A stretch of 64,000 nucleotides of DNA, taken from Protonemura montana (taxonomy: Eukaryota > Arthropoda > Insecta > Plecoptera > Nemouridae). The DNA lies in NCBI GenBank assembly GCA_947568835.1, contig OX387602.1, forward strand, positions 22,061,021 to 22,125,020, given 5' to 3'. Of the stretch, positions 13,180-49,300 are shown piece by piece. The translations under genes and the position numbers were made by a program. The notes under the pieces were generated by a model that worked only from the letters and a program-made list of their open reading frames with translations, searched no databases and was not told the DNA's origin. The first letter of the stretch is position 1. The number at the start of each line of letters is the position of its first letter.

Positions 13180-13212
<33 letters not shown>

Positions 13213-25200: not shown

Positions 25201-26649
25201 TGACCCCAACTTCCCCCCCTTGTAATATCCGAACGGTTGGACCAAAAAAAAAAAAATTAAAAAATAGCCCCTAAGTCAACAAACTTAACAAGTATACCAA
25301 TTTTCATCAAAATCTGGGTCGGTCAAAGTTTGAGGTGAGTGATTACACATGGAATGACCCTTAGTCAATGTGCATGGCAATGGTTTGGGATTTGTGAGCA
25401 ATGCTTATCATTTGTAACTCTCTTTTTTTCCTATGATTTTGGCATATTGCTCGTCCACGTCAGCGAGGGGACACTGCTGTGAGCGTCACGGCTACGCCAA
25501 GTTCAGCAAACCCAAGCACTGACGTAATACTGAGATAATGTTTACATCTAGCTTCTAACAACCAAATGCCGAACCATACTTTCTATTATTATCTGGTAGA
25601 TCTGACCAATGCACACTTTCATGTGAAAATGAACACATCGATGGATATTTAATTATAACCGAGTGTTTTAAGCCTCCTTTGTGTGTTTCAATGTGTATAG
25701 TTACTGAGCAACAGCACACTAATGTCATATATCTTTCAAGCAGGTCTCTGGAGAACATACTCTTGCCAACTTTAGTACCTTAAGACCCATGTATTTTTGT
25801 ATCGCCTAAACTTGGTGGTCTATTTCTTTTGAAGTACCGACACAGTGTTGACCGGCAAGGTATCCTGACTGTAATGCACTTGTGGTTTTTCCAGGGCAAC
25901 TGGGGCCAGGGCTACAACCAAGGAGGCAGTGGAAACTGGGGCAATGGCGGGGGCTGGGGCCAAGGCTACAACCAGCAGCAAGGGAGCGGCAATTGGGGGC
26001 AGCAGGGCTGGAAGAATTACAACCAGCAAGGGAGCGGTTACAATCAGGGAGGCTATGGCCAACAGGGAGGCTACAACCAGCAATCCGGCTATGGCCAGCA
26101 GACCGGTTATGGTAACGGGAACTATGGGAACTGGAACACGCAGCAACAGCAGGCATATTACCAACAAGCGTATGGAGCACAAGGCTGGGGACAGGTATGT
26201 TAAAGAAGACTGGCTTCGATAAAATTCACATTTCCGAGGCTTTGACCTTTTATTTTGCTTGCAGAACTATCTACAGTAATGCATGCCATTTGGGGTATTT
26301 TATCATCTTATGTTAATTTTTCAAATTTTGTTAGACAGGTTTGATATAAAATGGTATAGGGTTCAAAGTATCCAATCCATCTATTAAGAGGGGGACTATA
26401 TTACTGTGTATTGTGAATTACTTTATTGCTGAGTCCACGTCCTCTTTCTCGTAGGCCAACGCTGACGGCACGTACAACTACAACTCTACAACGGCGACCA
26501 CAGGCACCACAACGGCAGGTGCAGTGGGTACTGGTGGGCAACAGGGAACCTGGCAGGGCTACGGCCAGAGCTACAACTACGGCAGCCAAACGATGCCTGC
26601 CACCACAACACAGGGCACCGCTTCGGCATACACGTCCACCAAGCAGTAG
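10561..26649 (+). CDS. HNRNPUL1: Heterogeneous nuclear ribonucleoprotein U-like protein (SAP-SPRY-P-loop-RGG)
   Basis: Eleven exons: 10561-10690, 10894-11506, 11852-12156, 12535-12647, 12903-13166, 17548-17799, 18833-19001, 20292-20501, 20735-20991, 25895-26194, 26455-26649. They sum to 2808 nt, in frame, 935 aa. Residues about 3-37 form a SAP domain ([20 protein letters not shown]) for DNA/chromatin binding. Next come an acidic proline-rich stretch and an RS-like [18 protein letters not shown], then a SPRY domain (from [14 protein letters not shown]). An AAA/polynucleotide-kinase-like domain follows, with Walker A GLPGAGKT at 481-488 and [17 protein letters not shown] across an exon junction. 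The C-terminus has RGG/G-rich repeats and a Q/G/Y/N-rich low-complexity tail. This is the hnRNP U/UL1 architecture: nuclear RNA/chromatin binding, splicing and DNA-damage roles in vertebrates. The Q/Y-rich tail favours UL1 over U. Introns 5 and 9 each hold a complete 4.1-kb transposon. Confidence 0.93.
12320..12470 (+). repeat. Interspersed repeat with GACGAG-like stem and GAAAC core (copy 1)
   Basis: In hnRNPUL intron 3, a block GTCGAGCCGTGCCTCGTCGAAA followed by a CCCTTTTTAGGGCCGCAAACC-type hairpin is shared with 54215-54335 in the MROH1 gene. The element is non-coding; the boundaries are approximate. See the finding on a possible hammerhead-like core. Confidence 0.6.
13168..13211. repeat. 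(TATG)n microsatellite
   Basis: About nine imperfect TATG/TGTA units immediately after the donor of hnRNPUL exon 5. Confidence 0.8.
13272..13275. repeat. Target-site duplication ATAA, left (copy 1)
   Basis: ATAA directly precedes the GGGTCATT terminus and is repeated at 17387-17390. Confidence 0.85.
13276..13745. repeat. Left terminal inverted repeat of transposon copy 1
   Basis: About 470 bp that recurs inverted at 16908-17386. It includes a long T run and a G-rich/C-rich GGGGGGGAAGTTGGGGTC block. The outer end differs from its partner: CACCTCAAACTTTGACC here versus CACTTTTAATTAAATTTCACTTTGACC at the other end, a 12-bp gain or loss. Confidence 0.9.
13882..16464 (-). CDS. Transposase, 860 aa, intact (copy 1)
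   Basis: Single uninterrupted exon on the minus strand inside the 4111-bp element. The N-terminal third is Cys/His-rich (Cys and His at about residues 40-108, including CCDPF and [13 protein letters not shown]), probably a zinc-binding DNA-recognition module. A second Cys cluster ([11 protein letters not shown]) lies near 418-427. The catalytic core candidates are Asp513 in [10 protein letters not shown], Asp597 in [12 protein letters not shown], and Asp638 in [15 protein letters not shown] (or Glu624), a DD(D/E) arrangement. A poly-Glu run follows near 750-765. The C-terminus ([20 protein letters not shown]) resembles a small Tudor-like barrel. Its translation appears identical to copy 2, so the insertion pair is young and the enzyme may be active. 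It is not a host gene. Superfamily placement (Sola-like) is an inference. Confidence 0.9.
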   Translation of the reverse strand: MCSIGLFFEEECGPIEDLAIKSIESFNSDQQLSLALRTKCDNVKTVCHLHEKKFLRLYSCHHKLCCDPFQAHCGIVKVNGLREINAASRTKYLEIADLIPGKKLCSTCRKLLSLRLKELTTVSVLTPTKSTELDLPFVDIPCEADAVNQSLAAFGVSPINTTKLKGKSMFYSKRKFSEITQGVKKRLELVSPSNEEISKEDLTSSEECKDSIRDGSEIIAQLKEKFKTSTRSEKITILSVLPKSWSIKRIMQEFNASNHLVRKTKQLVKAQGILPSANQKAGKTLSPDCIQLIEEFYENDDVSRVMPGKKDFVSVKVGDNRVHRQKRLVLSNLSEVYRSFKDKYPDIKVGFSKFAELRPKHCVLAGAAGTHSVCVCTIHQNVKLMALGAKLPLLSDGTIKSYQHCLASLMCNPPLLNCFVGKCGNCPGTDELREWLEISFSENFIDSVTYKQWLSTDRCTLETITKPTDEFVDCFIEKCILLRNHDFIARQQAAFMQEKKANLKPGEVLVVGDFAENYSFVLQDAAQGYHWNNSQCTLHPFVCYFKPEDRDIQHLSYVVISDSLTHDTVTVHTFQKHLIRHLKQNISDVSHLIYFSDGAAAQYKNKKNFSNLCHHEVDFELTAEWHFFATSHGKGPCDGVGGTVKRNAARASLQKPYADQIMTPIDFYRWATENVWTVNFVFVANEEITANGIKLKERFKELKTIVGTRSFHAFYPKSLTSLHVKHFSLSEEINIVKIVEKNEEGEEEEEEEEEEATAAEIPEFEFKDVGSFITVAYNEDWWLACVLEKSSQSLELQVNFLHPHGPAPSYFYPSVQDKLIVAFADVLTLADPNTATGRTYFLSATDTNRATAGLIKYVPQ
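16908..17386. repeat. Right terminal inverted repeat of transposon copy 1
   Basis: Reverse complement of the left end over about 470 bp, ending GGAATGACCC before the ATAA duplication. Confidence 0.9.
20028..20212 (+). mobile_element. 5' truncated piece of 5S-rRNA-derived SINE, in hnRNPUL intron 7
   Basis: Contains the CCAAACGGTTTG head, the 5S-like GATCACCGAAG and GGTATTGGGTGGGT blocks, and the following GACCAGTTCTGTTC body, then ends within the body. It is the same family as 28155-28600, 37627-38072, 43624-44067 and 58114-58551 but lacks the 3' half. Confidence 0.7.
21246..21249. repeat. Target-site duplication TTAG, left (copy 2)
   Basis: TTAG precedes the GGGTCATT end and recurs at 25361-25364. 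Confidence 0.85.
21250..21728. repeat. Left terminal inverted repeat of transposon copy 2
   Basis: Recurs inverted at 24891-25360. This end carries the longer CACTTTTAATTAAATTTC variant next to the terminus, on the transposase-start side. Confidence 0.9.
22172..24754 (+). CDS. Transposase, 860 aa, intact (copy 2)
   Basis: Single open exon in the second 4111-bp element, with the same translation as the copy at 13882-16464 as far as I can read it. It has the same Cys-rich N-terminus, GDFAENYS and [10 protein letters not shown] catalytic-type motifs, poly-Glu run and Tudor-like C-terminus. The ATG is the first in the open frame after the 5' inverted repeat and non-coding leader. Two intact copies sharing one sequence argue for recent mobility. 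Confidence 0.9.
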   Translation: MCSIGLFFEEECGPIEDLAIKSIESFNSDQQLSLALRTKCDNVKTVCHLHEKKFLRLYSCHHKLCCDPFQAHCGIVKVNGLREINAASRTKYLEIADLIPGKKLCSTCRKLLSLRLKELTTVSVLTPTKSTELDLPFVDIPCEADAVNQSLAAFGVSPINTTKLKGKSMFYSKRKFSEITQGVKKRLELVSPSNEEISKEDLTSSEECKDSIRDGSEIIAQLKEKFKTSTRSEKITILSVLPKSWSIKRIMQEFNASNHLVRKTKQLVKAQGILPSANQKAGKTLSPDCIQLIEEFYENDDVSRVMPGKKDFVSVKVGDNRVHRQKRLVLSNLSEVYRSFKDKYPDIKVGFSKFAELRPKHCVLAGAAGTHSVCVCTIHQNVKLMALGAKLPLLSDGTIKSYQHCLASLMCNPPLLNCFVGKCGNCPGTDELREWLEISFSENFIDSVTYKQWLSTDRCTLETITKPTDEFVDCFIEKCILLRNHDFIARQQAAFMQEKKANLKPGEVLVVGDFAENYSFVLQDAAQGYHWNNSQCTLHPFVCYFKPEDRDIQHLSYVVISDSLTHDTVTVHTFQKHLIRHLKQNISDVSHLIYFSDGAAAQYKNKKNFSNLCHHEVDFELTAEWHFFATSHGKGPCDGVGGTVKRNAARASLQKPYADQIMTPIDFYRWATENVWTVNFVFVANEEITANGIKLKERFKELKTIVGTRSFHAFYPKSLTSLHVKHFSLSEEINIVKIVEKNEEGEEEEEEEEEEATAAEIPEFEFKDVGSFITVAYNEDWWLACVLEKSSQSLELQVNFLHPHGPAPSYFYPSVQDKLIVAFADVLTLADPNTATGRTYFLSATDTNRATAGLIKYVPQ
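24891..25360. repeat. Right terminal inverted repeat of transposon copy 2
   Basis: Reverse complement of 21250-21728 over most of its length, on the transposase-stop side, ending GGAATGACCC. Confidence 0.9.
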
Positions 26650-30834: not shown

Positions 30835-31249
30835 CGAAGAATTCACCCAGCAAGACTGTATTGATGAAATTTGTAATTTCAATTAATATTATTAAATAAT
30901 TTTCAATTTATTTGTTGCCTATTTGAGTACTTTGTTCAATAGCTTCCGAGCCAGAAAATAAAATTGACAATAAAATTTGTTCACTGGCCTGTACATACCT
31001 GCTGTAAATTTTACCCCTGACTTTTTCAAATTTTAACTAACTGTGATTTATCTCTTAATTATCTAGGTGCCTAAGAGCAGATGCCTTCATTTTTTAGTTG
31101 GTTTTGTTTAGGGATGTGATATTTACCATATGAAAATAATTGTCTGAACCTTTAGTCTGAACCATCCTTAGCGCAGCTAAACATAGTGTGAAAGAAAATG
31201 GTTTTTTCAGATTTTCAGATTACCATAGAATAAGAACCAATTCTTCAAG

Positions 31250-34200
31250 ATGCCTGGCCATTTTGTGATGTGCAGGCTATGCATGAAGAAGTCCAGTAGA
31301 TCGACCATGATGGAAAATGTTTTCCATGGTGAGGCAGTCACTGTGGAAACTATCAGGATTGTAACACAAATTGAAGTGAGTTAACTTAAATAAAAAAACG
31401 TATAATCATTTAATAATCTCTTTTAATAACAAATCTCCTTTGGCTTCCAAAGGTTGTAGAGGGAGATGGACTTCCACAGCATGTTTGTCTGTTTTGCATC
31501 CTCTCGTTAAACAGTGCCAAGAATTTCATCCAAACGTGCATCGAGTGCAATAAGAAGTTGAAATTGCAAAGCATGGTAAGAAAAGTTTGCCTATCTGCTC
31601 AACTTCCAGTCTCGGCAAATTAATTTCTTGCCAGTCTCTTACTTCGTGACCTGTTGACAATTTATGTTCTCTTTATGCCACTCTTTTTGAACAGTTTAAA
31701 TAAGGAAATTGATTAAACTAGCCCCATATTGATAATTTTTATTGGGTAAGCAGCAATTTCAACACATGCTCAAATTTTTTGCATGAAAAGTGTGTAGGTA
31801 TACATAATATTGTTGTATTGGGAGATTTGATAATTTAATTAGAAACGAAAAATGCTCTATTGTTTCCCCGATTATTCCACATCATTTCAGTTTGCCAGTA
31901 AGAACCAGATCGAGACATATGCATTAATGGATTTTTCAATTCTTTCAGCTGTTTTCTAGTGTCCACACTGGGTCACTCATTTCACCGTGAAAGTTATTGT
32001 AGGAACTTTTGATGCTGTCAAGGCTAGGGAAAATGCTGGTGTCTAGAATTAGAACTTGTTTTTACTAGCGATTTCAAACAGACCTACTGACTTAGCGTTG
32101 CTACTGTCATTAAGTTTCAGTTACTGTACTTGAGTTTCTACCGTTTTGCTTAACAGGTCAGAGCCTCAAAGCTTCGCACATCTGATAAAATTAAGAAAAA
32201 TTTTTCACCGGTAGTTCAGTCAACAGCTAGCTTACTTCGACGACCAAAAACTGAATGTCCTTCCCCAGATATTACGGAATTTGCCGCTCGGAGGCTGGAA
32301 CTTGGGAATGATTTTCAGGTAAATTTTTTTCTTTCCTTATGTGCATAAAGCATTTAATATTTTTCCACTCATTAACATTGCTTACACATTTGTTCAGGAC
32401 AATATGGATCAAGATCTTCTTGAAACAAATATCAAGGAAGAAAATGAGAACTTGGATGAAACTGATTCTGCTGAAATCACCATAGTATGTCATCCTTGTT
32501 TGACCTCATTTTCCTATTTTTTTAATTTAATTTAATTTTTTTAAATTTTAATTGAATTAGTTAATTTATTAATTTTTGCTTGTAGAATAAAACCCTTTTA
32601 TGTTTCACAGCCTGAATTGGAAGTGGAAAACGATGTGAACAAACAGGACGTAAGGAATGCACTTGTGGAATTGACTCAAGCATCTGGCAGCAGTGTTTTG
32701 GTAGGGTCATTCACATATAAAAGGTTGTAAAAAGGTTCCAAAAGTTTTAATGGCTCGGTCAAGCATTACAGTTGGGGTAGAGATTTTTTTAACTGAAGAT
32801 GACTTTAACAGAGGAACTTATAATCAGAGGCTGGGTTTGTTGCTAGTTTAGGACAGCCTAGGGCATTTCAATTTTTGGGCAGTACATTTAGGAAAGGCTG
32901 ACCCCAGTTAATTGAGACTTGTTATTACAGAACACTAAGGAGCACCGAGCATTCCAAGGAAGTAGCCCCAAGCAAGACAACCACAAACGACAACGATCGC
33001 CTAGCACACACAAACAGTGAGTTACAGACTGATAAGTCGAAACGTTTTTTCGAAATGTATATGGGTATATGTCTATAGCAAGCCATCAACAAAAGAACAT
33101 ATTTGTGTTTTTTTGCCAAATGAAGTGTTATTAGTAGAGATAGGATAGTAATGCAAATGCATACAAATGCTAGTATCCCATGCAAAATCGTAAATATATC
33201 CGTTTCATGACATTGGGATTGGAATGACATGTTGATATTACATGTATATTACATGTTATGTATCATAACTGTATCATATCTTTCACCATCATTCACCAAA
33301 ACCATACCATCATTATTATTATTATTTAAACATCATTTATCCTTCACCACTCATCTACATGTATCATATGATCATATAAAATTATTCTATTCTAACCATA
33401 CGCATAATCATAGCATAATCATATCACATAGCATAATCATATCACATAGCATAATCATAATCATAATCATTGACGATACCCATACCATGTACAATGTACT
33501 AGTCAACGGGATAATAAATACAATACAATACAATACAATACAATACAATACAATACATGTTTTGCATATTTCAGCTTTTAGTCCATATTTGGGCTAATAC
33601 TGCATAAAATTGCATATTTCAGCTTGTTTGGCAGTTTTACAGCGCATGTTTCAGGGAATGTTGCATACTCTACGCGTAAATGTATTATTTCCAAATTTTA
33701 TTCTAGAAACTAGAAAACACAAGTAATTCACTTCTGAGAATCGCAGAATCGCAACTTCTGAGAATCAGTATTTTCCTAGAACTTTCCAAGCTAGCAAGTT
33801 GTTAAGGGGTATAGGTAGGGTGAGGAGGACTTTACCCTCAGCCAGTCACAACGAACACAACCTACCTCATAATAGGGGTAGGTGGAGGGAGAGAAGGTGG
33901 TGGACTTAAAACTTAAGAAAAGGGAACCAATGAACACAGGTGTTTCATTAGCTCAACCGCTCAGTTCGCTGATTGTGCAGTAGCTAGTGGGTAAGCTTAT
34001 TTTTTTTATCATGGCGCCTATGAGAGCATCTTTAAGTGTGAAGTTGAAACATGGGTGAAAGAGCACAAATATTTAGCAAGTAATGGAATGGCCATTTACT
34101 GTGAAGGTTATATGCGATACCTATACTATGCGATACCTATACTATGCGATACCTATACTATGCGATACCGCATATTTGGCCATTTTTGCCACATATTTCA

Positions 34201-37200
34201 GTTTTTGATAGCACATATTTTGCGTATTTAAGCTTTTGACTTTGCATATTCTGGCTTTGATACTGCATTACAATCCTATCACTAGTTATTAGTCTACTTG
34301 TTTTGCTATATTCATCTAATACATTAAATATTTCTTCATAATAATTCTATCATCTTGGTGTGTTGGAGTCCTTGCCTAATTCCAGAAGATGAGCCCGAGT
34401 GAGACGAGGATGCTGAGGTTCTGAGCTGGTACAATTCTGACAACATCCACCTATCCACCCATAAGTGGATAGGTGGATGTCGTCTGTTAATAAAAAAAAT
34501 ATATATAGTAAAGAAAAAATAAAGGTCCTATATATATTTTTTTTTAATTACAAATTTTGGTGCCAGGTTGACATCTTGGCTGAGTGACATTTTACTCATT
34601 GAACATGTACTGTTCATTTTAAATTGACTAAGAGATACTAGTGGGCAAGCTAAAATGCAAAAAAAAAAACATCATTTTTTACAAGTTTTGGGCACTTCAC
34701 GATGCAAAGCTAACTTGAAAGTACCATGATCATGAATGCGATATCAATACAGTCATGTGGGTAATAGTAACATACCAATTTAATGCTCAATAAGCAAGGA
34801 ATTGGTCAAAATACAACACTTTTTCATCATCCTCAGCCAAGGCAAGATTACGCAACTGATTGTAAGCAGCTATGTTCTTTGCAACTTTTAAGCCAATCAC
34901 CGATGGTAAGAGCTTCTTTTGCAAGCTTTCAAGACATAAAATACAGTTTTTACAACAACCAGGACATGCTAAATATGTATCTTAAAGATAATTTTGACAA
35001 AAGTAGATTTGGAGTGACAGATTGAGACGACAATTGACAATTATTCTGCATCGACGTTAGATGCTGTAAACATTTTTTGAATTTTCAAAAATGCTGTGAA
35101 TTTGCAACAGGTATTTCTTTAATATGCAATCATGATGCAATTCCAAACTTTTAATTTTCAACTTAAAATTTTTAAATTTTCAACTTTTTATTTGCTTAAA
35201 CCTCCTCCAGCTACAAGCACATGGCATTCTCAATCAAAAATAAAATAAAATAAAAAAATGCACCGTTTTTGGCACGTTTGTTTTGTTTTTGGTGGATGCT
35301 TGCCTTGAATTTGCAACATGTATTTGAAATTGTCTTTGGTTATAAAAATGCAGTTAAAGAAAGAGTGGCTAATTTTCATTATACATCTTGTTTGGCATTA
35401 AATAAATGAGAAATAATGCTCTACAAAGAAAAGAGCTCAAAGGTATAAAAATGTCCGCATAGCCGGCTACCCTGTTGAGGAGCGTAGCAGCGGACGACTG
35501 CTAGTTGAGTCTTCTTCTTTTACTACATTCATCCCAAATATTAAATATTTCTTCATAATAATTCTATCATCTTGGTGTGTAGGAGTCCTGGGCTAATTCC
35601 AGAAGATGAGCCCGAGTTAGACGAGGATGCTGAGGTTCTGAGCTGGTATGATTCTGACTTGAACCTGGTGATAGACAAAGCAAACTTCCTCTCTGCGGCA
35701 CCTGTGCATATCAATGCGTTCGGCTACATGTGGGCTGGTGCTCGAGCTGCATTCGGCTTTGCCGACGGCAAGCTTGCATTCCAAACGAAGATCGAGGAAG
35801 ACTTGGATGTGTCGCATCTTGGGAAAGAGCCCTGTCCCAATGTGGTGCGTGTCGGCTGGTCAGTGTCCAACACTACATTGCAACTTGGTGAGCTAAAGAA
35901 CGTTGCTTGGCAGGTATGAGTGTTATTATTGTGCTCAAAGTCTTTTCTGAGGCACTGATAAAGACTCATGTAACACCTGTTCCGTATAGATTCCTGCATT
36001 TATGTTCTTTAGTACTGGAGTGTAACAACTTTTGACTTAACCCTTTTGTGGCCAGTGGGAATACGTCCTTCCAATATGCAAATGGCTGTGCTACTTTACT
36101 GGGACATGTAATTTCAACTACAGAGAATCGGAGAGAAGCGCATATCCCTCAAGTTGATATGCTCAATAAATACTCAATATAAATAAAATAATTGTATGGA
36201 ACCATTTTTACAATTTAGTAATAGCTTAGAGGTAATAGATTATTTAACTACATAATGGTTCAATACTGTTGGACTAAAAGTAAATTTGACTAAATACCTT
36301 TAATATTAATACTTACTCAGGAAGATGTTTCACATGTTTTCCTAACAGTATTTGGTTTGCTATGACATATGAATAAATGTATCCTCTGCGTATTGTTAAA
36401 ACTTCTATAGGCAAATTGATATACTATACATACTCCTACAAATGTATTATTTTTGTAATGATTTTGTACTTTATCAATTTCTGATTGGTTTTGGTATTCA
36501 CAGGAGAGGGGCCCCGATCGTATGGCTTTTGCGGAACTGGGAAAGCATTTACCGACTGCAAGTTCAAGGACTACGGAGTACCCTTCAAAGTCGGTGACAT
36601 TGTCACATCGTACCTGGTGAGGACTGCACTTATATAAAAAAAAACAACATGTTTCTATTTGCTACCAAGCGTTTACTACCTCTCGATGGTTTTAAGCCGT
36701 TAGTGAGCCTCTTGTAGGACTTGTGACTGTAGTATGACCTTGTGACATACATTAAGATTACAGCATATCACTATGTGTAAATTTTATGCTTGCTCTTTTC
36801 TGTAAATCTTAAAACATTGGCTGTGAAACAGATTTTATTTTATAAATGCTGATTTCCTATTAACTGATTTATCTCTACCATACATATTTTTAGGAATACC
36901 ATGGAAGTGTAAAGGCCCTTCTGTTAGGTTTATTTTTTAAATTGTCACATCAAGCATTTTTCGAAGCTGCTGTTTTTCATTATTAAAAAGCAATTTACAC
37001 AAATATATTTACAAAGTACAAACAGGTTGAGGGGAAGATAATATTCTGTCCTTTCTTTTCCCTGTTGTATGCTATGCTCGTTTCAAATGCTTTCCCGTCA
37101 ATGTCTCATCCCTTGCCATTCCAGGAGTGGACCGAAGAGCACGCTGTACTAACCTTTGCAGTGAACGGCGAGACCCAAGGCGAAGCTTACCGAGTGCTCC

Positions 37201-40200
37201 GCAAAAAACTGGATGGCCAGCCACTCTTCCCACATGTTCTCTCCAAGAACCAGCGATTCTCCGTTGACTTTGGCGCTCGTGAAGAACCGTGGTTCCCTCT
37301 AGACGAAGGTTTTGTGTTTGTCGGCGCTGCGTCGGTAGAGAGCCGTGTGGCCGGCCCGCGCCGCCCTGAGAAGAAGGAGGATTGTGAGGTATGTATGCTT
37401 ATTTCTATTTGGAGATAATTATGCTTTCAGTCAACCAGATTTCCATCCACCCTAACCTATTAATACTAAACTAACCAGTGTTGTTGAGGAATTATCACAA
37501 TAGCATAATAATTTAGAAATTACAATGATGAGAATGTTGTTAAGAATGTAATAATCATTGATACCAGAAACATAACTCATGTATTTCATGCTGCCTGCAT
37601 GGGCTGTCTTGTATTTGCAAGCGCAAACCGAATGGTTTCGCATGTTAAAAACATCGCTTTTCATTAGATCACCGAAGTTAAGCAACACTGCACTGAGTCA
37701 GGTATTGGATGGGTGACCATCATAAACACGACCAGTTCTGTCCGGGAGAGAGGTTAGAGGAATTTTAGTTGGTACTGCAACTTGATTTGCCTTGCCTACC
37801 AACCTCTCGACAGCATGGACATGTGGAGGAATCCTGCTGTTTGAGTTGTACTGTTCTTCGGAATGGACATTAAGCTCCTTAGTGCTCTTCGACAGGAGTA
37901 GGCTACGTGCCGGCACCAGGTTTCCTCTCCTCCCTTCTAGGCTAGGTTAGGTTCATCATCATCCTCATCCTCATCATCATCATCCACTCATCCACCTACG
38001 CCATTAGACCAGTTCCGCATGCCCAGATGTCAAAACAGTGCGTCGTTAAACACCACAATTAAATAAGTAAAATGCAAGCGCAAGCTTTGACACGTTTAGC
38101 TGCAACTTTCAGATAGTAATGATGTGCGGCCTACCGGGAGCGGGTAAGACCACCTGGGTGAACCAGTATGTCGCCGGTGTGCCTGAGAAACAGTACAACG
38201 TCCTGGGAACCAATGCACTCATCGACAAGATGCGAGTAGATGGTCTCCCTCGTAAAGGCAACTGCGAGGGCCGCTGGGAGCATCTCATCGAGAAGTGCAC
38301 GCGCTGCTTGCTCAAGCTGATGGAGGTGGCCGCAGGCAGGCGTAGAAACTACATCCTGGACCAGGTAGGAACAACGGCCTAGATAAAAAGCTAGTATTAG
38401 CGAAAGAATCTACCAAGTGGTAGTAATGATGTGACCACGTCTATGACCCCTTAGGTGAAGTTTGTTTTGAAGGTTGATTAATTGCATCAATGTTCATGCC
38501 CAAACAGACAAATGTTTACCTGGCTGGTCAGCAACGCAAAATGCGTTTATTCGAGGGGTTTGTACGCCGAGCGATTGTCATTGTGCCGACAGACGATGAA
38601 TTCAAACTCCGATTGGCCAAACACGAGGTGGTCAAGGGAAAATTCTCGCCTAACAAGACTATGCTGGAGATGAAAGGTAATTATTGTCTACGAATATGTT
38701 GAAACCAATGAAGTTCTTCCAGTTGTCCAGCCTTGTTTGTTTTATACATATCTTTTCTCTTTGGGCGTTCAATAAGCTCTACTGCTTCAAAACATTATTT
38801 TTGTTTTCAAGCCTATTTACACTTTATTCCCCATCTTATTTATTGGTTCAACAATCAAATTAACCAATTCAAACAATTTAATAGACCCACACGTTTTTGT
38901 ATTTTTTTTGGCTTCATAAGTCACTGTGGTTGTAAAAAGAAATGCCTTCTGTCCTAAATGCCCCACGACTTTTCATTCCTAAAAATAAATTATCCACTCT
39001 GCAACACTGCAACACTGCAACAATGTAAACTTTTATTCTGTCAGAAAACTGACTGCATACAACTGGGCAACATACAAATCATGTAGAGACTAATCTAGGA
39101 GACGATATACCATTTGCTGTGGTAGCTAACCCATATAAGAGACTTGTTACAATTTCTCCACTTGTAGGCTGAACAGCTCACTTCTTAAGGCTAAGATACT
39201 TTGCATATTAAAATCCTTTAACGCGACTCATGGGTATCCCCACTCCGCTGTTAGGAGGACCTCCTGACAGCGCGTCTGAGCGGCTTACTCAGAATCGCTG
39301 TCGGTAGCTACCATACATAATATAGCGCTGCGCACCGACTTAAACGGACTTCAGTTTCATAAAAACTATTTTTCTGATCGAGATAATACGAATATTTTTT
39401 AAATCTTCGTGATTTAGGGTAGAAAATGATATATTATCACTATCAAAACTGTATTTACTAGTGAGACTTTGACGTGGAAACACGGCCGGAGTTTGATACT
39501 CATTTTAACACCATGAAAAACAATAATTTTATTTAGAATTAGATAAGCAAGATGTCTGAAAACTTGTTATTTTCTCAAGATTAGTATTGTAGACATAAAA
39601 CAAAATTGTGAATCTCTAAACTCTATTACTTCTCGGAAAACCGACACTGTATTAGTGACTCAGCAACACTTGAGAAGAAAGCCATGCAGAAAGATTTACT
39701 CTAATGTTGAATTTCAAGTACCTTATGAACCCCCTTAAACCGCAAGAACCATGAAATACCATTGGAAATGAACTCTCAAAAAAACTTTGACCCATCACTC
39801 TGATGGCATACCATACTTTCTTTAGATGAAGCCAAGCACTTGCAACTATTGAGCTTGGTGTGTGGTGCCGGTAAATTTCTTATGCGATCGTCAACAGTGT
39901 CAAAATGTGAAGCTTGTCGTCTGATTGCAGCCAACTTCGCGCTACCCAAGGAGGGCGATGTGTTCTCTGAGGTGATATTCATCGAGTTAGAGCACAAAGA
40001 GACACAGGTGCTAGTCGAACAGTACAACAAGGAAGGTCGTACAGCAGGCTACAGCAGCCAGAACAACAAGAAGCCGCGCAATGCCAGTTCCGGCAGCCAG
40101 GACATTCTAGATGGGTCCTTGCAAGGACGTGAATACCGGGTTAAGAGTAGGTTCTTTTTGGTTCTGTCAACTCTTCTATCAAGCGCTCTTCAAATAGAGG

Positions 40201-41768
40201 CCCTACACGTTCCCAGTAGACTAAACTTCGAATGCTGATTCCTAACAATGCAATATGTTTTCTTTCGGCCTCTCGAGAACAAACGAAAGTGTGTACACCC
40301 ACGGGCACATGCCTTTTATAGCAGTTAAAAGAAAGGAGATTTTTCGCTCAACCGGCAACTTTTTGTTTCCTTCCGTCAGAATATGGCAGAAAGTAACATG
40401 ATTTTCCTTACCTCGAAACCTGCGAGATCTCCTATAACAACAATAATTATTGGCAGGTGGACGAGGTATCTCCAACCAACGTTCGAGGGGTGGTGGCTTG
40501 CAGCAGCGCGGTCGCTCCAGGGGTGGTAGGCGCGGCCTCAGTAATGACCGCCGCATGCGGGGGGATAGCGGCGGAAATTCCAGCGGCGCCAACTATAATC
40601 GTTGGTGCTCCCAAGCTGGCTCTGCTGTAAGTGTCTCTGGTGTTAGGAAGTATTTAACCTACTTTGTGTGAACTGTGTGTGTTGTAATGAAGTTGCGATT
40701 GTCACCACCTAATTGCAGAGCAATGCTTGTCTACGTACATACCAATGTTTGTACAGGCAAACATACAAGTTACAGGCAAGTGGTGTTTGGGTTTACAGCA
40801 AAATTTTGTGAGTTCAGTAAAACCGTTGAGTAAAGACTCGTAACATTCTGTAAAAATGTAAAACGCTTATTCACTGTTACAAGTATCATTGAATAGGTAA
40901 ATGGTGAATGGCTGGCTCAGCGGGCTTAATGTTTAAATTTCTGCCGAGAAAACACGGCAACACATAGTAACAATAGGTGCTACCCGATGGCGCTTGAGGT
41001 TGTCCTTTTTAACAAATCTCCACAATAAAATAATTGACACTCAAAATATCAATACATGTTAATAAATCGTTGAAGTTAGTAATACATATAGAAATAAAAA
41101 TTAATTTAGCATAAACTAGTCCCACATGCAAATAATCTGTAAGAAGTTGCAATAGGAAATGGCTTGACACTAGAAATGACAGTGACCCCACCTAATACTA
41201 TTCTCCATTTTTTTTGGTAAGGTAGAAATGTGGCCGCTATTGATTTGTGTAGACAGTTAAACGTTTATTAAGTACACTAGCAGGGATAACATGTAATTGA
41301 AGAATTAAGCTAATTTAATATTTGCTCTACATTTTTTTTTCAATGTAGAATTGTTATAATTTTAAGAACACGAATTCCTGGGAAAATAATCCTTGAATTA
41401 TTCCCCCCCACCCCTGGCCATTAGTAGACTGAAGATGTCCACATAACTACCTACTTTTTCAGCAAAACACCACTGGCTATCAGGGAGGTGTTGGATACTG
41501 GAACAATGGGGCCTGGAATGCTGGCTACAACCAGCAGCAGCAGCAGCAGCAGCAAGGGGGTGGAGGCCAGCAGGTCTGGGACAACTACTACAGGCAGCAG
41601 GATCAACAGGGTGGCACCTTCAGGCATGCCCAGAACAATTACTACAACCAGCTGGAGGGAGTTTACAGCCAACAAGGAGTCTACGGGCAACAGGGATGGT
41701 GGAACCCCCTATCCAGCAATCTTCAGCAGACCGGCTACTACAATGTGAACTACAACTGGAATAAATAA
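31250..41768 (+). CDS. Chimeric ZAD / hnRNP U-like protein (ZAD-SPRY-P-loop-RGG-Q-rich)
   Basis: Fourteen exons: 31250-31375, 31453-31575, 32157-32318, 32398-32484, 32611-32700, 32931-33016, 35583-35887, 36504-36616, 37125-37388, 38113-38364, 38508-38676, 39931-40146, 40457-40626, 41463-41768. The sum is 2469 nt, in frame, 822 aa. Residues 1-83 are a ZAD domain (C8, C11, C54, C57; MCRLCMKK and GLPQHVCLFC), paralogous to the gene at 43350. From about residue 200 the protein becomes hnRNPUL-like: KRQRSPS, then SPRY ([14 protein letters not shown]), Walker A GLPGAGKT (458-465), an RGG region and a Q-rich tail with a CAG run. The SAP domain is absent. The five core exons have the same lengths as in the parent. 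The VPD motif of the parent kinase end is changed (GKFSPNKT), and the exon 12 donor has moved. ZAD domains dimerise, so this would give a dimeric RNA/chromatin binder (inference). AATAAA at 42193-42198. Confidence 0.85.
33200..33560. repeat. Simple-sequence block: ATAATCAT-type and (AATAC)n
   Basis: In the long intron 6 of the chimera, CATAGCATAATCATATCA-type repeats are followed by about eight AATAC pentamers (about 33518-33558). Confidence 0.8.
34118..34172. repeat. 16-bp tandem repeat (ACTATGCGATACCTAT)n
   Basis: Three to four copies of a 16-bp unit in intron 6 of the chimera, within an AT-rich region with recurring GCATATTTCAG words. Confidence 0.85.
34310..34441 (+). pseudogene. Truncated duplicate of the SPRY exon 5' end
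   Basis: This stretch repeats the acceptor region and first ~60 bp of the exon at 35583 (ATTCCAGAAGATGAGCCCGAG, then GAGGATGCTGAGGTTCTG), plus about 70 bp of the preceding intron. It carries an in-frame TGA (GAG TGA GAC in place of GAG TTA GAC), and the acceptor AG is lost (GTGTTGGAG versus GTGTAGGAG). It ends abruptly at a 16-bp perfect hairpin. It cannot serve as a functional exon. Confidence 0.8.
34443..34480. repeat. Perfect 16-bp hairpin at the duplicate-exon breakpoint
   Basis: ACATCCACCTATCCAC (34443-34458) and its exact reverse complement (34465-34480) are separated by 6 nt, exactly where similarity to the SPRY exon stops. Confidence 0.85.
37627..38072 (+). mobile_element. 5S-rRNA-derived SINE, full-length, plus strand
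   Basis: It begins ACCGAATGGTTTCGC, followed by the 5S internal-promoter-like region (TTAGATCACCGAAGTTAAGC and GGTATTGGATGGGTGACC), a body, and a TTAAACACCACAATTAAATA tail. A perfect 11-bp target-site duplication TGCAAGCGCAA flanks it (37616-37626 and 38073-38083). It lies in intron 9 of the chimera and is absent from the matching hnRNPUL intron. Confidence 0.92.
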
Positions 41769-42192
41769 CAACACCAGTAGTATTAATCATTTTATGGGGC
41801 AGAAAGCTGTGTATTCAATAGCAACTTGCCCTGGTTTTGACAAAAAAAAAGTATCTTTCACATTTTCTAGGTGCGTGCAGATGAATCATTTCAATCGTGT
41901 GTTTATTTCATTATGTTGTGTAAAATACAATTCTTTATTCTTAATGTTATTTAAAACAATTTAGCAATAGCCTTTTGATATAATCCACTTTTGGAGGATA
42001 GAAAAATACTACTGGCTTTGTACAATTAGTGGGTTTTATTACATACATAGTGCAGTGTAAAATGTGTTTTAATTCATTTATTTGTCAATATTTTGTTGCT
42101 TTTGTGTCAACACGATATGTCGTCGCTTTTTCGTATTAACATGTTATTTGTTTCAGAGGTGTCGGTTGAAACTGCTAAAAGTAGCCTCATGT

Positions 42193-42198
42193 AATAAA
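42193..42198 (+). promoter_or_regulatory. Probable polyadenylation signal of the chimeric gene
   Basis: AATAAA about 425 bp after the stop codon. Confidence 0.5.
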
Positions 42199-43349: not shown

Positions 43350-46300
43350 ATGTCAGGCATTTCGGAGGTGTGCCGGCTATGCATGAAGAAGTCTAGGTTG
43401 CCAGGCCAGATGAAGAATATTTTTTCTGGCGAGGCAGTCACTGTGGAAACTATCAGGACTGTGACACAAATTGAAGTAAGTTGTGTTTCCCATAGAAACA
43501 TTAATTAATCTTTGTTTAGCCCATTGTATATGGTTATTTTAGCGTTAGTTATTGTGCACTAACGACTTTGAGGCGAGTATTTATCTTTTTTTATTAATGA
43601 GTAGGTAGGCCTTTGGTGCTCTTCTTTGTGGTGTTTAACAAAACACTGTTTTGACATCTGGTCATGCGGCACTGGTCTAATGGCGTTGGTGAATGAGTGG
43701 ATGATGATGAGGATAATGAAGAACCTAACCTAGCCTAGAAGGGACGCCTAGAAGGGAGGGGAAACCCGGTTCCGGCACGTAGGCTACTCCTGTCGAAGAG
43801 CACCAAGGGGACCACCAGCTTAACGTCCCTTCCGAATGACGGTACAACTCGAACAGCAGGATTCCTCCACAAATCCATGCTGTCGAGAGGTTGATAAGCA
43901 AGGCAAATGAAGTTGCTGTACTAACTTTCATCCCTCTAATCTCTCTCCCTAACAGAACTGGTCATGTGTATGATGGTCACCCATCCAATACCTGACTCAG
44001 CGCAGTGTTGCTTAACTTCGGTGATCTAATGAGAACCGGTGTTTCCAACACGCCAAACCGTTCGGTTTTTGGTGCTCTTGGAAGGCTTCGTGACTGTACT
44101 TGGTTTATGCTTAACTCTCTTCAATTTAGGCTAGGCTTGTAATAAACCTCGTGGCAACCAAATTATTCATCAAAGGTCTGTTGGCAAGTGTTTCAACGAG
44201 TTACAATCACCTAATTCAGCACCTTCAACCAATGTGATGATGCAAATGAATTTAAAATAGTTATTAATATATAACAACTTGATTGTATCATTGCAGCAAT
44301 GCATTTAATTGTTTACCTGGAATAGAACTTTGTTTCAAATCTAAGAATCTAAGTCTGAAAATACAGATATCATGTTAATTTGTCAGATGAAGACTTACAT
44401 TTTATGTTCCAAAATATGTGAAGACAGCATTTTTTCTATGTGTCCATCCAAAAGCTTGAACTAAATATCTTTGCCCAAATCAATAGCATTAAATAATGAC
44501 AAATATTAGTTTTGTTTAATAGTATATAATTGCAGGCTATAGAATATAACAGTAATATAAATATTTCAAATGGATAAGAATTTTTTCAGAATGTATTAGT
44601 AAATAAATAATAAATAACTCAACTCTCTTGGCTTTCAAAGGTTGTAATGGGAGACGGGCTTCCACCGAACGTCTGTCAATCGTGCATCTCGAAGTTGAAC
44701 AGCGCCAGAAATTTCATCCAGTCATGCATCGAGTGCAATGAAAAGTTAAAATTAGAATTCACGGTGAGATAATTTTGCCTACTGTTCACTTAACCTTACA
44801 CTCTACCTATTTTAGATTTTCTTGTTTTGAGCTGCATTGTAATTTTAATGTGGTTACTAAGGCAATCTTCTCTGAGTTGTCTTTAAGGGAGTTGTATTTA
44901 ATGGATCAACCAGGTGTCAAAGTACATGTGAGAATTGCTGTTTTAGTGCCACCTATTTAAATAATACTATCAATATATGCAATTATATTTGATCAGTGAG
45001 TATGTTGGGAGACAAATATCTGTTTGGTTTCAAAACCATTGACATTGATCTTGTTTGGTTCAAAAGGTCAGTGCCTCAAAATCGACAGCCTCCAACATAA
45101 TCAATTCCTTGTCGCCAACATCTACCCCAGCAGCTGTCTTTCCTGGACAGCTAAAGACTGAGACATCTTTGCCATATTTATCAGAATATCCCAACAGAGT
45201 AACTGCGCATGAAACCGATGATCAGGTAATTTGTGTTCACGTCATTAACAACTAAAGGAAATGGCCTACAAATCCTTTTTCAGGCCATTTCATGACTGTT
45301 CGTTGGAATTCATTTGACTGTTTCCTAGTAGATTTGTTGGAACATTTTTAAATCAGATTAGCTCGGAAAGTTTGTGGAAAAAGTGTCAAGTGACACAGTC
45401 CATAGAAGTGACCAAAGATCGTAACAAAAGACTTGCTGCAAAAGCTCAGGAAATCCTTGAGGGAAGATCTCAAAGCAAAAGCAAAATCTCTTGAGAGAAG
45501 ATAAAATATAGAATTTGCTAAAATTCTCTCCAAATTTGTTTCCAGCTGTAATGTCAAAAGTGGGTCCAGAGGGTTTTGAAATGGTATCTCCTCCCATGGT
45601 ATGGACTATATTGCTACGAAATCTCTTGAGAGAAGATAAAATATCAAATTTGCTCCAATTCTCTTCAAATTTGTCAGCTCTTATGAAAAAAATAGGTCGA
45701 GAGGGTTTTGAAATGGTATCACCTCTCATGGTATGGACAATATTACTTTGTTTCATAAGCTTTCTGACAAGGAGGCATTTATAGACCTGCCAAAAAACTA
45801 GGTGAAAGGTGGAACACGGTGGAACCAGCCACAGCATAAAATTAAATATTAGAAAGGTACACCACAAATGTTGGGAATCACACTTTTAAAGGAAGAATCA
45901 TACCAGAACTAAATTAAAAGTACAAAATTCTTTTAAAAATGACTAATATGATAGAAACCTTAAAAAACTGTTAGTGTATTTCCTAGTCTGATAAACACTA
46001 AACATTATATGTAAAATATTATAATAATATATATAGGAATTCAAATAATATCATTTATGTAAATGATATATTTACCAGGAAGATCAGGCCAAAAACAATA
46101 AAGAGTGATACAGCAAAAAACAAAAAAATATATTTTCGATAGTTTACACAATTCATTTACATTACTAGTAGCAAAGGTCAGCAAAAACACATTTTTTTTT
46201 ACAGAATGTGGATCCACTCACCGTTGAGGAAGATACTGACCAGTTTGATCTTAAATATGAGATGTTCGATGAAACTGATGTTGCTGACATCTGCAGGGTA

Positions 46301-49300
46301 TGTCAACCATAAAAAATAGCTCGACAAGGATAATTTATAAACTTAATTGGCACAGAGCAATAAAGACTCTTTTATTTCCACAGCCTGGATTGGACAATGA
46401 AAATAGTGAGATGGAACCAGTCGTGAAGTCTGACCCCTTGACTGTGACTCAAGAAGCTGGCAGCAGCCTTTTGGTAGGTGCATTCACAAATATTAACTCC
46501 CTAAGGTTTTGGCTCCTGTGGTAAGTTTATGTGGATTCAAATGTGCCCGAAAAGCAATTATTCAATATTTTTATCAGAATGCGATTATCAAATAGGTGGG
46601 AACCTATTTTAAGAAGTGGCCTCCCCCTCCCCACACAAAAAAACAGTAATGGTAATTTTGACTGGCCTGCACCTAGCCTGCACTTGTACGATTACATCAT
46701 ACGCTCCACCGGGCTTGCACTAACTCTACCCGAGAATTTTTCCGATTGCACTCTGATAATCGTCAAGCAACGCTGTGCCAAACGAACACATGGAAGTTTC
46801 TGTGGGGCAGAGGCACATGTCCAGTCAAACAGGCAGATTGCTCCCTAGTGCACACCTGGTGCACACCGAGGCAGCCAGTCGAGTATGCCATAACATTAAT
46901 TTTAGAGCTTCTTGTGGTGTATTGAGTTACTAAGCTAATATCTTATTGCAACATTGCCTACTTGTATTGCAAACCTTTAAATTAACCAAAATAGTACTAA
47001 ACAACTGTGATGTGCAGGTTAAAGGATAAGCATTTATTCTTCAAATTAAAAGCCTGGCACAGATTTCAATTTTGACTTGAGTAATTAGGAAACCCAAAAA
47101 TATGCAAACAAATCGAGACAAACCAAGATACCAGGGTCCTTCTTTAGTCATTCAGAACCAAGATAGTTAAGTTTGCCAAGAGTTTTTTTGCAGCAAGTCA
47201 AAAATAACTGTAACCAAGCTGGAGTTCCCAATATTTGTTTACATTTCAGGTGGAGTTATCTAGAGAAAGTTTTGGTCTGCAAATAAAAAGAGAACAAATA
47301 GCTGTGCACGAAGAATTTGATGACCAGCTACTTTTACCGGTAGGTACTTTATTGATGGTGAAAAAAATGTTAATGTATTCTTCTTAATTGTAATGAAAGT
47401 AATTGTAAGCGTATTTATTTAATTTTTAGACCGAAGCAGAGGAACCCATTATACTCAATTTGCAAGAAAGTGACTACGATGTAACTACAGCCCAAGAAAT
47501 GAATAAAATTGGCTGGGGAGAGGTGGTACCAGCTTTTATGGAGGCAATTCCACCTCTAAATATGGTATCGGCATCCTGCCAGGAACCCAATTCCTCAGAA
47601 AACTCTGCAATACCCGAGCTTCACAACATCAGGAGCACAGAAACTGTTACAGCCAAGATCCATGCAAGGAATACAGTAGAAAACGAGATTGAAAGTCCTA
47701 TTCTAATGCCACGGGTAAATTTATCCACGATTTTATGATATAATTTCACGTACATGCAATTTCACATAATTTAATGTCTCTAGCTTGACAAACCCTGTCT
47801 AACTTGCTTACATCTCATAAGTTACAATTATAAGTGCCTACATCACTGTTTCTCGTGTAATATAATATTTAACAAAAAAAAGGTTTTTAAAACCAAATAA
47901 AGGAACTAATTGGTTCTTCATTTCAGAAAACAAACAAATCAATCCTTATGATGATTTTAGACTCATGCCTACTTGATTTATCCTTAGCACTAGTTTTAAG
48001 AAAAACTATTTGAAATGGGTTTTGAATGAGTAAAGGGCTACTAAATTTCCCATATGCCTGGGATATTCCCATATCCCATATGCCACAAAATATTAGAATG
48101 CATTAAAATGTTTCTTTTTTGTTCAAGTGCCAAAAAACGAAATGTTCTATGAAAATTATGAAGCAGCTTGATAAGAATTCAGATATGATATAGATATGTG
48201 TGGGAAATTTAGTAGCCATTTACTTAGCATTCAAAACCCATTTCAAATAGTTTTTCTTAAAATCAATCCTTTATCTACATATCTAAGGTTCAATCAAGTA
48301 GACATGAGTGTAAAAACAATCATCTACATCGAAATTAATTGCTAATGGTAGTGATTTATTAGGCATTTGGATAATGTTTTACGGCTCTCATTACCCAAAA
48401 AATGTTAGAATTAATCTTTGGCCCTAATTTTTGTTTGGCAGGTGTTACCTAGAGCATCGTCTTCGAGAGTCAGTGCAGGTACAAAAAGCATACTGCTACG
48501 CTTGACTCAACAACGCAAGCGAGGGGTGCAATGCCACAAGTGTTGCCGCATTTTTCCACGGCTCTCCCTTCTGCGACAGCACGCTTGTGATTCAACAGAG
48601 AGCTCCAACGTTTTTGATTTCAGCCGCATGTTTGAATGCAGTCATTGCTTGGCAGGTTTCTCCAGCACCACTAGTCTGGAAATTCATCAAAAGCAACATT
48701 TAGGGAATCGTTTTTGTTACAAAAAACCTGGACCGAACTCACAGGCTAGTGACTTTGACATAAATAGCTCCGATTCTGAAACTAGTGTCTTCGAGTTAAA
48801 CATACCAGATTCTGAAGGCAGCAATCAAGATCTGAAGAGTTCAGATTCAGAAGGTAGCAAAATGGGAGCCCACTTGGATTCAGAGGAACCTGACTTCTTT
48901 CCAAGTTCAGATTCAGATTCCTGCGAAATGGACAAAAGCAGTTTTGAAACAGATGTCAGTGTTTTAAGGTCAAATTCAGATTCCGATGGATCAGACATAG
49001 ACACAAGTTTGGAATCAGAAGGCAGCGGGCTGAGACCAAACTCAGATTCGGAAAGGAGTTGCAGAAACACCAGCACGGAATCGGATGGTAGTGTAATGAA
49101 GTCTCAAGCAGAGGAACCAGAAGCAGATGTAGAAACAACAGGCTGTTCATTTGTTGATTCTGCCCAGGGAACTATGACTTCCTGTCAAAATTCAGAATTT
49201 CAGGTAACTCAACTAACTAAAAACCTCTTCATTTACATAGTTTAGGTGTTGATTTGTAATGTGCCAACGTTTCGGCTGTTGCATTTATCACTAGAGAGAA

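What the first reader, a model, noticed from the sequence alone, without database searches (positions are those of the whole stretch)
31250..41768. A ZAD domain fused in frame to an hnRNP U-like body: a new chimeric gene
Six exons of ZAD-gene type are followed by eight exons of hnRNPUL type. Every intron phase fits, giving an 822-aa frame without stops. The ZAD domain is known from transcription factors with C2H2 fingers; the SPRY/P-loop/RGG body belongs to RNA-binding hnRNP U proteins. I know of no ZAD-SPRY-kinase architecture. The retained reading frame over about 2.5 kb of coding sequence, intact ZAD cysteines and intact Walker A argue for function, not decay.
Basis: partly seen in the sequence, partly recalled or inferred. 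Interest (0 to 1): 0.93.

Follow-up and report, generated by a model that had tools for sequence, protein, structure and literature searches.

The report
ZAD–hnRNPUL fusion gene from tandem duplication
An animal genome carries an old fused gene, made when a stretch of DNA was copied next to itself, that joins the pairing domain of a transcription factor to the body of an RNA-binding protein, and its sequence looks preserved by selection rather than decayed.

Summary
Fourteen exons at 31250-41768 (+), all introns GT-AG, give an open frame of 822 aa. One correction: five exons, not six, come from the ZAD gene. The 3' part of exon 6 is the tail of the hnRNPUL gene's exon 2.

Both parents lie intact on either side, same strand: hnRNPUL gene A (10561-26649, 935 aa) and ZAD-C2H2 gene B (43350-51108, 953 aa). 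The order A - chimera - B is what one tandem duplication gives with one break in A exon 2 and the other in B intron 5. The two halves have the same synonymous distance from their parents (0.68, 0.67), as one old event predicts.

Purifying selection is clear in SPRY and dPNK (dN/dS 0.12, 0.24), likely but not proven in the ZAD (0.31), not detected in the linker (0.85). Codons before the body's first Met are conserved (0.08) and exon 7 offers no in-frame start, so translation must begin in an upstream exon.

Best reading: a functional gene in which ZAD pairing and nuclear targeting replace SAP on an hnRNPUL core. No transcript, relative or population data were available. The architecture appears undescribed; its route of origin is well known.

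The parts
31250..31575 (+). Chimera exons 1-2 (31250-31375, 31453-31575): ZAD domain, residues 1-83, Cys pairs C8/C11 and C54/C57
   Evidence: zf-AD 36.9 bits, cut-off 28; PDB ZADs 7pok 7.9e-7 and 7po9 0.0029; 80% and 76% DNA identity to gene B exons 1-2
32157..32700 (+). Chimera exons 3-5 (32157-32318, 32398-32484, 32611-32700): linker of the ZAD gene, residues 84-196
   Evidence: collinear matches to gene B exons 3-5 of 60-78% (for exon 4 only part of the exon); dN/dS 0.85
32719..32971 (.). Duplication junction: detectable gene B homology ends at 32719, gene A homology starts at 32971
   Evidence: the stretch between matches neither parent above shuffles
32931..33016 (+). Chimera exon 6: its 3' part is the end of hnRNPUL exon 2 with its donor; needed to keep the frame
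   Evidence: score 52, shuffle maximum 34.5; skipping it gives a stop at residue 205
34291..34441 (+). Decayed partial copy of the exon 7 start inside intron 6: acceptor AG lost and an in-frame TGA
   Evidence: 137 of 151 identical to 35508-35658
35583..37388 (+). Chimera exons 7-9: SPRY region
   Evidence: phmmer to DDX1 SPRY 4xw3 at 2e-14; dN/dS to gene A 0.12
38113..40146 (+). Chimera exons 10-12: dPNK (AAA_33) domain and start of tail; Walker A, Walker B Asp, RNA-pocket Thr and Arg, and the 'dead kinase' Asn all kept
   Evidence: AAA_33 80.7 bits; residues checked against numbering in PMC13066744
40457..41768 (+). Chimera exons 13-14: shortened RGG and Q/G/N-rich tail, stop TAA at 41766-41768
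   Evidence: matches gene A exons 9-10 at 63-67%; for gene A's last exon only a 9-residue chance-level hit, E 0.95
10561..26649 (+). Parent gene A: hnRNPUL-like, 11 exons, 935 aa, SAP + SPRY + dPNK + RGG, intact
   Evidence: SAP 42.8 bits, AAA_33 100.9 bits; SAP matches 1zrj, SPRY matches 4xw3
43350..51108 (+). Parent gene B: ZAD-C2H2 gene, 9 exons, 953 aa, intact
   Evidence: zf-AD 42.5 bits, zf-C2H2 28.3 bits
37065..38379 (+). Exons 9-10 and intron 9: unusually close to gene A, probable gene-conversion tract
   Evidence: dS 0.29 against 0.73 in exons 7, 8, 11, 12; Fisher p 4.5e-8 against the other body exons

Best explanation
It is a real, old, protein-coding chimeric gene. Shown by sequence: the layout is that of a tandem duplication that took in the part from exon 2 of hnRNPUL gene A to intron 5 of the adjacent ZAD-C2H2 gene B. 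It left both parents whole and made, at the junction, a new gene with the 5' side, ZAD and linker of B and the SPRY-dPNK-RGG body of A. The tail of A's exon 2 became part of exon 6, whose 86 nt bring the two frames into register. Supported by selection tests: the body, and probably the ZAD, are maintained as protein. Inferred: it uses B's promoter; the protein dimerises through its ZAD and is carried to the nucleus by it, as shown for other ZADs. It keeps the nucleotide- and RNA-binding dead-kinase core of hnRNPUL proteins but has lost the SAP domain and part of the C-terminal tail. Its most likely action is as a ZAD-dimerised RNP scaffold that assembles with gene A's product through the shared core. 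It may also pair with gene B's product through the related ZAD, and so link or compete between the two parents' pathways. I give about 0.88 that it is a functional chimeric gene from this route and about 0.35 that the mechanism is as stated; the figure given here is for the statement as a whole, with the mechanism taken as the leading proposal.
For: Intact 822-aa frame with 13 GT-AG introns. A - chimera - B order on one strand with both parents intact. No tblastn hit at E up to 1 for A residues 1-248 (SAP side) in 26650-43349 or for B residues 198-953 (finger side) in 32701-43349; the control, A 1-248 in its own gene, was found. In the 258-Mb genome the 12 scored hnRNPUL-body matches are 6 of A and 6 of the chimera, 12 of 12 in the window. 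Outside the chimera itself gene B is the nearest ZAD (2.2e-12 and 1.1e-8, against 4.1e-4 for the best of 11 matches elsewhere). dS is 0.68 [0.48-0.99] for the ZAD half and 0.67 [0.55-0.82] for the body. dN/dS is SPRY 0.12, kinase 0.24, tail 0.29, ZAD domain 0.31. If the chimera were neutral, its own branch alone would give more nonsynonymous changes than both branches show: 124.7 against 35.0 observed (SPRY), 85.5 against 43.5 (kinase), 55.1 against 37.2 (ZAD). Neutral simulation (substitutions only) at 0.335 per site gives 15.2 stops in the body (0 of 2000 runs intact) and 4.9 in the ZAD half (1% intact). Residues 226-273, before the first body Met, have w 0.08 [0-0.23] and exon 7 offers no upstream in-frame ATG. 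The seven pocket residues checked are kept.
Against: No transcript evidence was available. The ZAD domain's strict bound is not significant at 5% (7.6% of bootstraps w>=0.5), and the linker fits neutrality (w 0.85; 97% of bootstraps w>=0.5). At lower divergence the open ZAD half is unremarkable (36% of neutral runs intact at 0.05, 15% at 0.1). There are 117 AG..GT stretches of 10-400 nt between exons 5 and 7, this one included, that would keep the frame open, so the open junction is weak evidence alone. The acceptors of exons 7 and 11 score low (2.4, rank 34 of 152; 1.2, below the A/B range of 2.2-16.3). AAA_33 falls from 100.9 bits in A to 80.7 in the chimera and zf-AD from 42.5 in B to 36.9. 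Intron 6 holds 39 in-phase ATG..GT stretches, 4 of them (sharing 2 donors) with a fair donor, as possible alternative first exons. dN/dS bounds assume that synonymous change splits equally between the copies; bootstrap replicates with saturated dS were counted as low w, which favours constraint in the tail and in residues 226-273. Gene conversion in exons 9-10 blurs part of the comparison; exons 7, 8, 11, 12 without them still give w 0.17. The mechanism rests on other species' proteins.
Confidence: 0.75

Rival explanations
1. Two separate genes: a ZAD-only protein that ends in intron 5 and a 5'-truncated hnRNPUL gene with its own start in intron 6.
For: AATAAA/ATTAAA motifs exist in introns 5-6 (10 listed, 33513 onward); 4 ATG..GT stretches in intron 6 (sharing 2 donors) with a fair donor could join exon 7 in phase; the linker between the halves shows no constraint.
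Against: Residues 226-273 are strongly conserved and exon 7 offers no in-frame start before them, so an unknown first exon is needed. Exon 6 keeps hnRNPUL's own frame and donor and is joined in phase to the ZAD exons.
Confidence: 0.1
2. An unexpressed or decaying duplicate: a pseudogene that happens still to be open.
For: Faster change in linker and tail, lower AAA_33 and zf-AD scores than the parents, weak acceptors at exons 7 and 11.
Against: dS near 0.7 with no stop in 822 codons; 0 of 2000 neutral runs keep the body open at 0.2 or 0.335 changes per site. dN/dS of SPRY and kinase is far below what a neutral copy allows. A small neighbouring copy of the exon 7 start, only 9% diverged, has already lost its acceptor and gained a stop.
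Confidence: 0.07
3. Functional, but as a dominant-negative or decoy of one parent (for example a ZAD that titrates gene B, or a SAP-less hnRNPUL that poisons gene A assemblies) rather than a scaffold. This shares the gene reading with the best explanation and rivals only its mechanism.
For: SAP, fingers and part of the tail are lost while the ZAD and the SPRY-dPNK core are kept.
Against: Conservation of the nucleotide/RNA pocket and of SPRY suggests that the core does its own work; nothing here separates this from the scaffold model.
Confidence: 0.25
4. Assembly artefact joining unrelated copies.
For: The region is repetitive: tandem copies, a 4.1-kb element in two near-identical inverted copies.
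Against: The chimera differs from A and B by about 0.3 (exons 9-10) to 0.7 or more synonymous changes per site in every part, so it is not a mis-join of parental reads; the window lies 22 Mb into contig C1 of a 34-contig, 258-Mb assembly.
Confidence: 0.02

Closest known systems
hnRNPU / hnRNPUL family (SAF-A, hnRNPUL1)
   Same: SPRY followed by a dead-PNK/AAA domain and an RGG tail; Walker A Gly-Lys-Thr, Walker B Asp, RNA-pocket Thr and Arg, and the Asn that makes the kinase dead are kept at the spacing given for hnRNPUL1 in PMC13066744 (passages seen; checked)
   Different: No SAP domain; ZAD and a ZAD-gene linker at the N-terminus; shorter C-terminal tail; the residue before the RNA-pocket Arg is Gln, where gene A has Arg
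ZAD-C2H2 transcription factors of arthropods
   Same: N-terminal ZAD with two Cys pairs and a variable, fast-evolving linker, as described for ZAD-ZNF proteins in PMC7655104 and PMC5509000 (passages seen)
   Different: No C2H2 fingers follow; an RNA-binding body takes their place
Chimeric genes from tandem duplications that ignore gene borders (Drosophila yakuba; PMC5460883, passages seen)
   Same: Parts of two neighbouring genes joined by a tandem duplication
   Different: This one is old and under purifying selection, whereas those surveyed there are polymorphic and thought very young
MEF2D-HNRNPUL1 fusion of leukaemia (only a reference title seen)
   Same: Joins a transcription factor to hnRNPUL1 (which ends are joined is recalled, not seen)
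   Different: A cancer rearrangement, not an inherited gene; no ZAD (recalled)

Membership tests
Tandem-duplication chimeric gene | Intact parents adjacent, same strand, in the order 3'-donor gene, chimera, 5'-donor gene | tested here: met
   Gene A 10561-26649, chimera 31250-41768, gene B 43350-51108, all + and open
Tandem-duplication chimeric gene | Both halves equally old | tested here: met
   dS 0.68 and 0.67 with overlapping intervals; exons 9-10 lower, 0.29
Tandem-duplication chimeric gene | Expressed as one transcript | not testable with these tools
   no RNA data; indirect support
ZAD-C2H2 family | N-terminal ZAD with two zinc-binding Cys pairs | tested here: met
   zf-AD above cut-off; C8, C11, C54, C57
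ZAD-C2H2 family | C-terminal C2H2 finger cluster | tested here: not met
   no C2H2 match in the chimera; gene B residues 198-953 give no tblastn hit in 32701-43349
hnRNPU/UL family | N-terminal SAP domain | tested here: not met
   no SAP in the chimera; gene A residues 1-248 give no tblastn hit in 26650-43349 (the short exon 6 remnant is below that search's reach)
hnRNPU/UL family | SPRY domain | tested here: met
   phmmer to 4xw3 at 2e-14; the Pfam SPRY model did not report it in A or the chimera
hnRNPU/UL family | Dead polynucleotide kinase domain with Walker motifs and Asn at the catalytic place | tested here: met
   AAA_33; equivalents of G433, K434, T435, N456, D505, T507, R516 kept, placed by residue number from PMC13066744
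hnRNPU/UL family | RGG-rich C-terminal tail | tested here: inconclusive
   2 RGG in the chimera tail against 4 in gene A (counted by eye in the sequences)
hnRNPU/UL family | RNA- and ATP-dependent oligomerisation | not testable with these tools
   known for SAF-A from PMC5473940 (passages seen)

The most novel reading that the evidence does not exclude
The fusion makes a physical bridge between a sequence-specific ZAD-ZNF factor and the RNP mesh. The chimera pairs with gene B's product through the related ZAD (67.5% identical) and with gene A's product through the SPRY-dPNK/RGG core. It thus targets hnRNPUL-RNA assemblies to gene B's DNA sites, a sequence-guided version of the scaffold that SAP guides (that SAP has little sequence preference is recalled, not tested).
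Probability: 0.15. Interest if true: 0.78.

Novelty: new variant of a known kind. Interest (0 to 1): 0.55.

Why it matters
Chimeric genes from tandem duplications arise often, and loss is reported as their prevailing fate (PMC5460883, passages). Here both parents, the junction and a long history of selection can be read at one locus. The product would put a transcription-factor dimerisation and nuclear-import domain on an hnRNP core in place of its DNA-binding SAP. It is a natural experiment on what SAP does in SAF-A-type proteins and on whether ZADs work outside zinc-finger proteins.

Tried and rejected
Relatives: a viral-contig scan for gene A's body gave 1 pattern match and no confirmed relative. 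I used a bound instead.

Intron flanks as a neutral clock: global alignments of 100-nt flanks lie around the value for random 100-mers (mean 0.69, sd 0.06); they are largely saturated and show nothing beyond age.

Breakpoint to the base: not resolved; 32720-32971 matches neither parent above shuffles.

Out-of-order DNA matches (36173-36314 to 11626-11772 at 65%; 37628-37787 to 20034-20193 at 73%, a repeat) were not counted as gene matches.

Alternative polarity (A and B split from an ancestral fusion): rejected, because SAP-SPRY-AAA/dPNK-RGG is the human layout and ZAD-C2H2 the usual arthropod layout in the passages seen, and exon 6 is partly a remnant of A's exon 2.

NCBIfam: only weak matches far below cut-off, best PNK-3'Pase 0.0057.

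Structure prediction: not run. The tool takes proteins that the DNA gives letter for letter, and these are spliced.

Organism: not identified; a ZAD set of this kind points to arthropods (PMC5509000 passages).

Literature: ZAD with hnRNP, 0 papers; zf-AD with SPRY and fusion, 0 papers; hnRNP U chimeric-gene search, 1 irrelevant paper; ZAD domain-combination searches, 20 of 198 listed and 2 of 2, none describing such a fusion in the titles, abstract starts and passages that I saw. The library is open-access only.

First exon guesses were off by one or more bases and were corrected before use (superseded by 19).
Full report
What is there. The 822-aa frame was rebuilt exon by exon. It has 14 exons at 31250-41768, 13 GT-AG introns, matching phases and no internal stop; the other two frames of the joined sequence hold 34 and 43 stops. 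Pfam finds zf-AD at residues 7-79 (36.9 bits, cut-off 28) and AAA_33 at 454-598 (80.7 bits, cut-off 27), no SAP and no C2H2 finger. Pfam's SPRY model reports neither this protein nor gene A at E up to 1, but both match the DDX1 SPRY chain 4xw3 by phmmer (2e-14 and 2.3e-15). The ZAD matches solved ZADs (7pok 7.9e-7, 7po9 0.0029; Grauzone 1pzw only 0.06).

The parents. Two intact genes flank it on the same strand. Gene A (10561-26649, 11 exons, 935 aa) carries SAP (42.8 bits) and AAA_33 (100.9 bits); its SAP matches 1zrj at 6.1e-7, the entry that PMC13066744 gives as hnRNPUL1's SAP. Gene B (43350-51108, 9 exons, 953 aa) carries zf-AD (42.5 bits) and C2H2 fingers (28.3 bits). Chimera exons 1-5 match B exons 1-5 in order and exons 7-14 match A exons 3-10 in order; two further, out-of-order matches are a dispersed repeat and a 65% intron stretch. 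In the 258-Mb assembly the 12 scored hnRNPUL-body matches are A (6) and the chimera (6) (the tool scores only its best candidates). Of 18 ZAD-half matches at E up to 0.1, 5 are the chimera itself, 2 are gene B (2.2e-12, 1.1e-8), and 11 are elsewhere with 4.1e-4 as the best.

The junction. Similarity to B runs to 32719, 19 bases into B's intron 5; similarity to A starts at 32971. The last part of exon 6 and its donor match the end of A's exon 2: 52 bases, 75%, score 52 against a maximum of 34.5 in 300 shuffles. The stretch 32720-32971 matches neither parent above shuffles. It is needed: skipping it shifts the frame to a stop at residue 205. The frame being open is weak evidence by itself, since 117 AG..GT stretches of 10-400 nt in the region, this one included, would keep it open.

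How it arose. A duplication of [A exon 2 ... B intron 5] in tandem gives A whole, then B's 5' part joined to A's 3' part, then B whole. That is the order seen. One event predicts equal age for both halves. Synonymous distances are 0.68 [0.48-0.99] for the ZAD half and 0.67 [0.55-0.82] for the body. Neither the SAP/acidic part of A nor the finger part of B gives a tblastn hit in the chimera region, while the positive control was found at full identity. Exons 9-10 are an exception, with dS 0.29 against 0.73 in exons 7, 8, 11 and 12 (Fisher p 4.5e-8 for exons 9-10 against the other body exons). Part of intron 9 is still about 80% alike. The simplest reading is later gene conversion between A and the chimera.

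Is it kept? Pairwise dN/dS is SPRY 0.12, kinase 0.24, tail 0.29, ZAD domain 0.31, linker 0.85. Because the parent shares the comparison, I asked whether the chimera could be neutral while its parent never changed. This requires a pairwise value of at least 0.5 if synonymous change is split evenly. Among 4000 bootstraps none reach it for SPRY or kinase, 2.4% for the tail (saturated replicates counted as low), 7.6% for the ZAD domain and 97% for the linker. So constraint on the chimera's own branch is shown for the core, likely for the ZAD, and not seen in the linker. In a substitution-only neutral simulation at 0.335 changes per site the body gains 15.2 stops on average (0 of 2000 runs intact) and the ZAD half 4.9 (1% intact); at 0.1 the figures are 0.1% and 15% intact. 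A small natural control lies beside it: a copy of the exon 7 start at 34291-34441, only 14 of 151 bases different, has lost its acceptor and has an in-frame TGA.

One gene or two? The first Met in the hnRNPUL-derived part is residue 274, inside the SPRY exons. The 48 codons before it (226-273) have dN/dS 0.08 [0-0.23]. Reading upstream of exon 7 in frame meets a stop at 35542 without an ATG. These codons must therefore be translated from an exon upstream. The ZAD exons supply starts; an unrecognised first exon in intron 6 cannot be excluded (39 ATG..GT stretches in phase, 4 of them, sharing 2 donors, with a fair donor). The splice sites are not uniformly strong: the acceptors of exons 7 and 11 score 2.4 and 1.2 against 2.2-16.3 for A and B.

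How it most likely works. From passages of PMC13066744, hnRNPUL1 has a SPRY-dPNK core that binds nucleotides and uncapped RNA; its kinase is dead because Asn456 stands where PNKP has Asp. The equivalents of G433, K434, T435, N456, D505, T507 and R516 fall at the same spacing and are kept in A and in the chimera; the residue before R516 is Gln in the chimera and Arg in A. The match is by residue number from the paper; no call showed the human sequence. From passages of PMC5473940, SAF-A oligomerises with RNA through its AAA and RGG parts, and SAP has DNA-binding activity. From passages of PMC5081699, PMC5509000, PMC7828040 and PMC7655104, ZADs dimerise, mostly with themselves, serve nuclear localisation, and sit before a variable linker. 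The chimera would thus trade SAP's DNA binding for ZAD pairing and nuclear import on a nucleotide- and RNA-binding core. Pairing with gene B's product is possible (ZAD domains 67.5% identical), but the reported preference for homodimers speaks against taking it for granted.

What it is and is not. It contains a ZAD but is not a ZAD-C2H2 protein (no fingers). It has an hnRNPUL core but not the family's SAP. It may work like an hnRNPUL RNP protein without being a full member. The route of origin is known: PMC5460883 (passages) reports 76 chimeric genes from tandem duplications in Drosophila yakuba, polymorphic and thought very young. I found no paper that joins ZAD with hnRNP or zf-AD with SPRY (also 29, 56, 57; 5.39 million open-access papers). 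No protein database could be searched for the architecture.

Limits. No RNA, no relative, no population data. The organism was not identified. Interest is moderate to good: a clean, old, selected chimera with a new domain pairing, by a well-known route.

Noticed in passing
13273-17390 and 21246-25363: Two oppositely oriented copies (4118 nt, 100% complementary) of a mobile element with 443-base inverted ends sit in introns of gene A. The first holds an 863-aa stop-to-stop frame with no Pfam match above cut-off (best 0.052). Read by eye, the flanks suggest 4-base target duplications. Probably recently active.
   Followed up: partly
28160-28600, 37625-38060, 43625-44070, 58120-58550, 20029-20193: Related dispersed repeats with a 5S rRNA-like part; Rfam calls 5S rRNA at 43947-44065 (-) and 37628-37746 (+). 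They look like 5S-derived SINEs.
   Followed up: partly
37065-38379 against 12848-13272 and 17377-17814: Exons 9-10 and part of intron 9 of the chimera are much closer to gene A than the rest: probable ectopic gene conversion, or an unusually conserved intron segment.
   Followed up: partly
34291-34441 and 35508-35658: Young internal duplication of the exon 7 start, 91% identical, with the copy already decayed.
   Followed up: yes
45484-45747: Two-copy tandem repeat of about 130 bases in intron 3 of gene B.
   Followed up: no
6871-7188 (+), 9531-9935 (-), 52720 onward (+): Neighbouring genes: an enoyl-CoA hydratase/isomerase exon and an EF-hand gene divergent from gene A (Pfam); downstream of gene B a long gene that looks HEAT-repeat-like (this last name is recalled, not tested).
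   Followed up: partly
12346-12416 and 54221-54291: A 71-base segment shared (85%) between an intron of gene A and the region downstream of gene B; likely another dispersed repeat.
   Followed up: no
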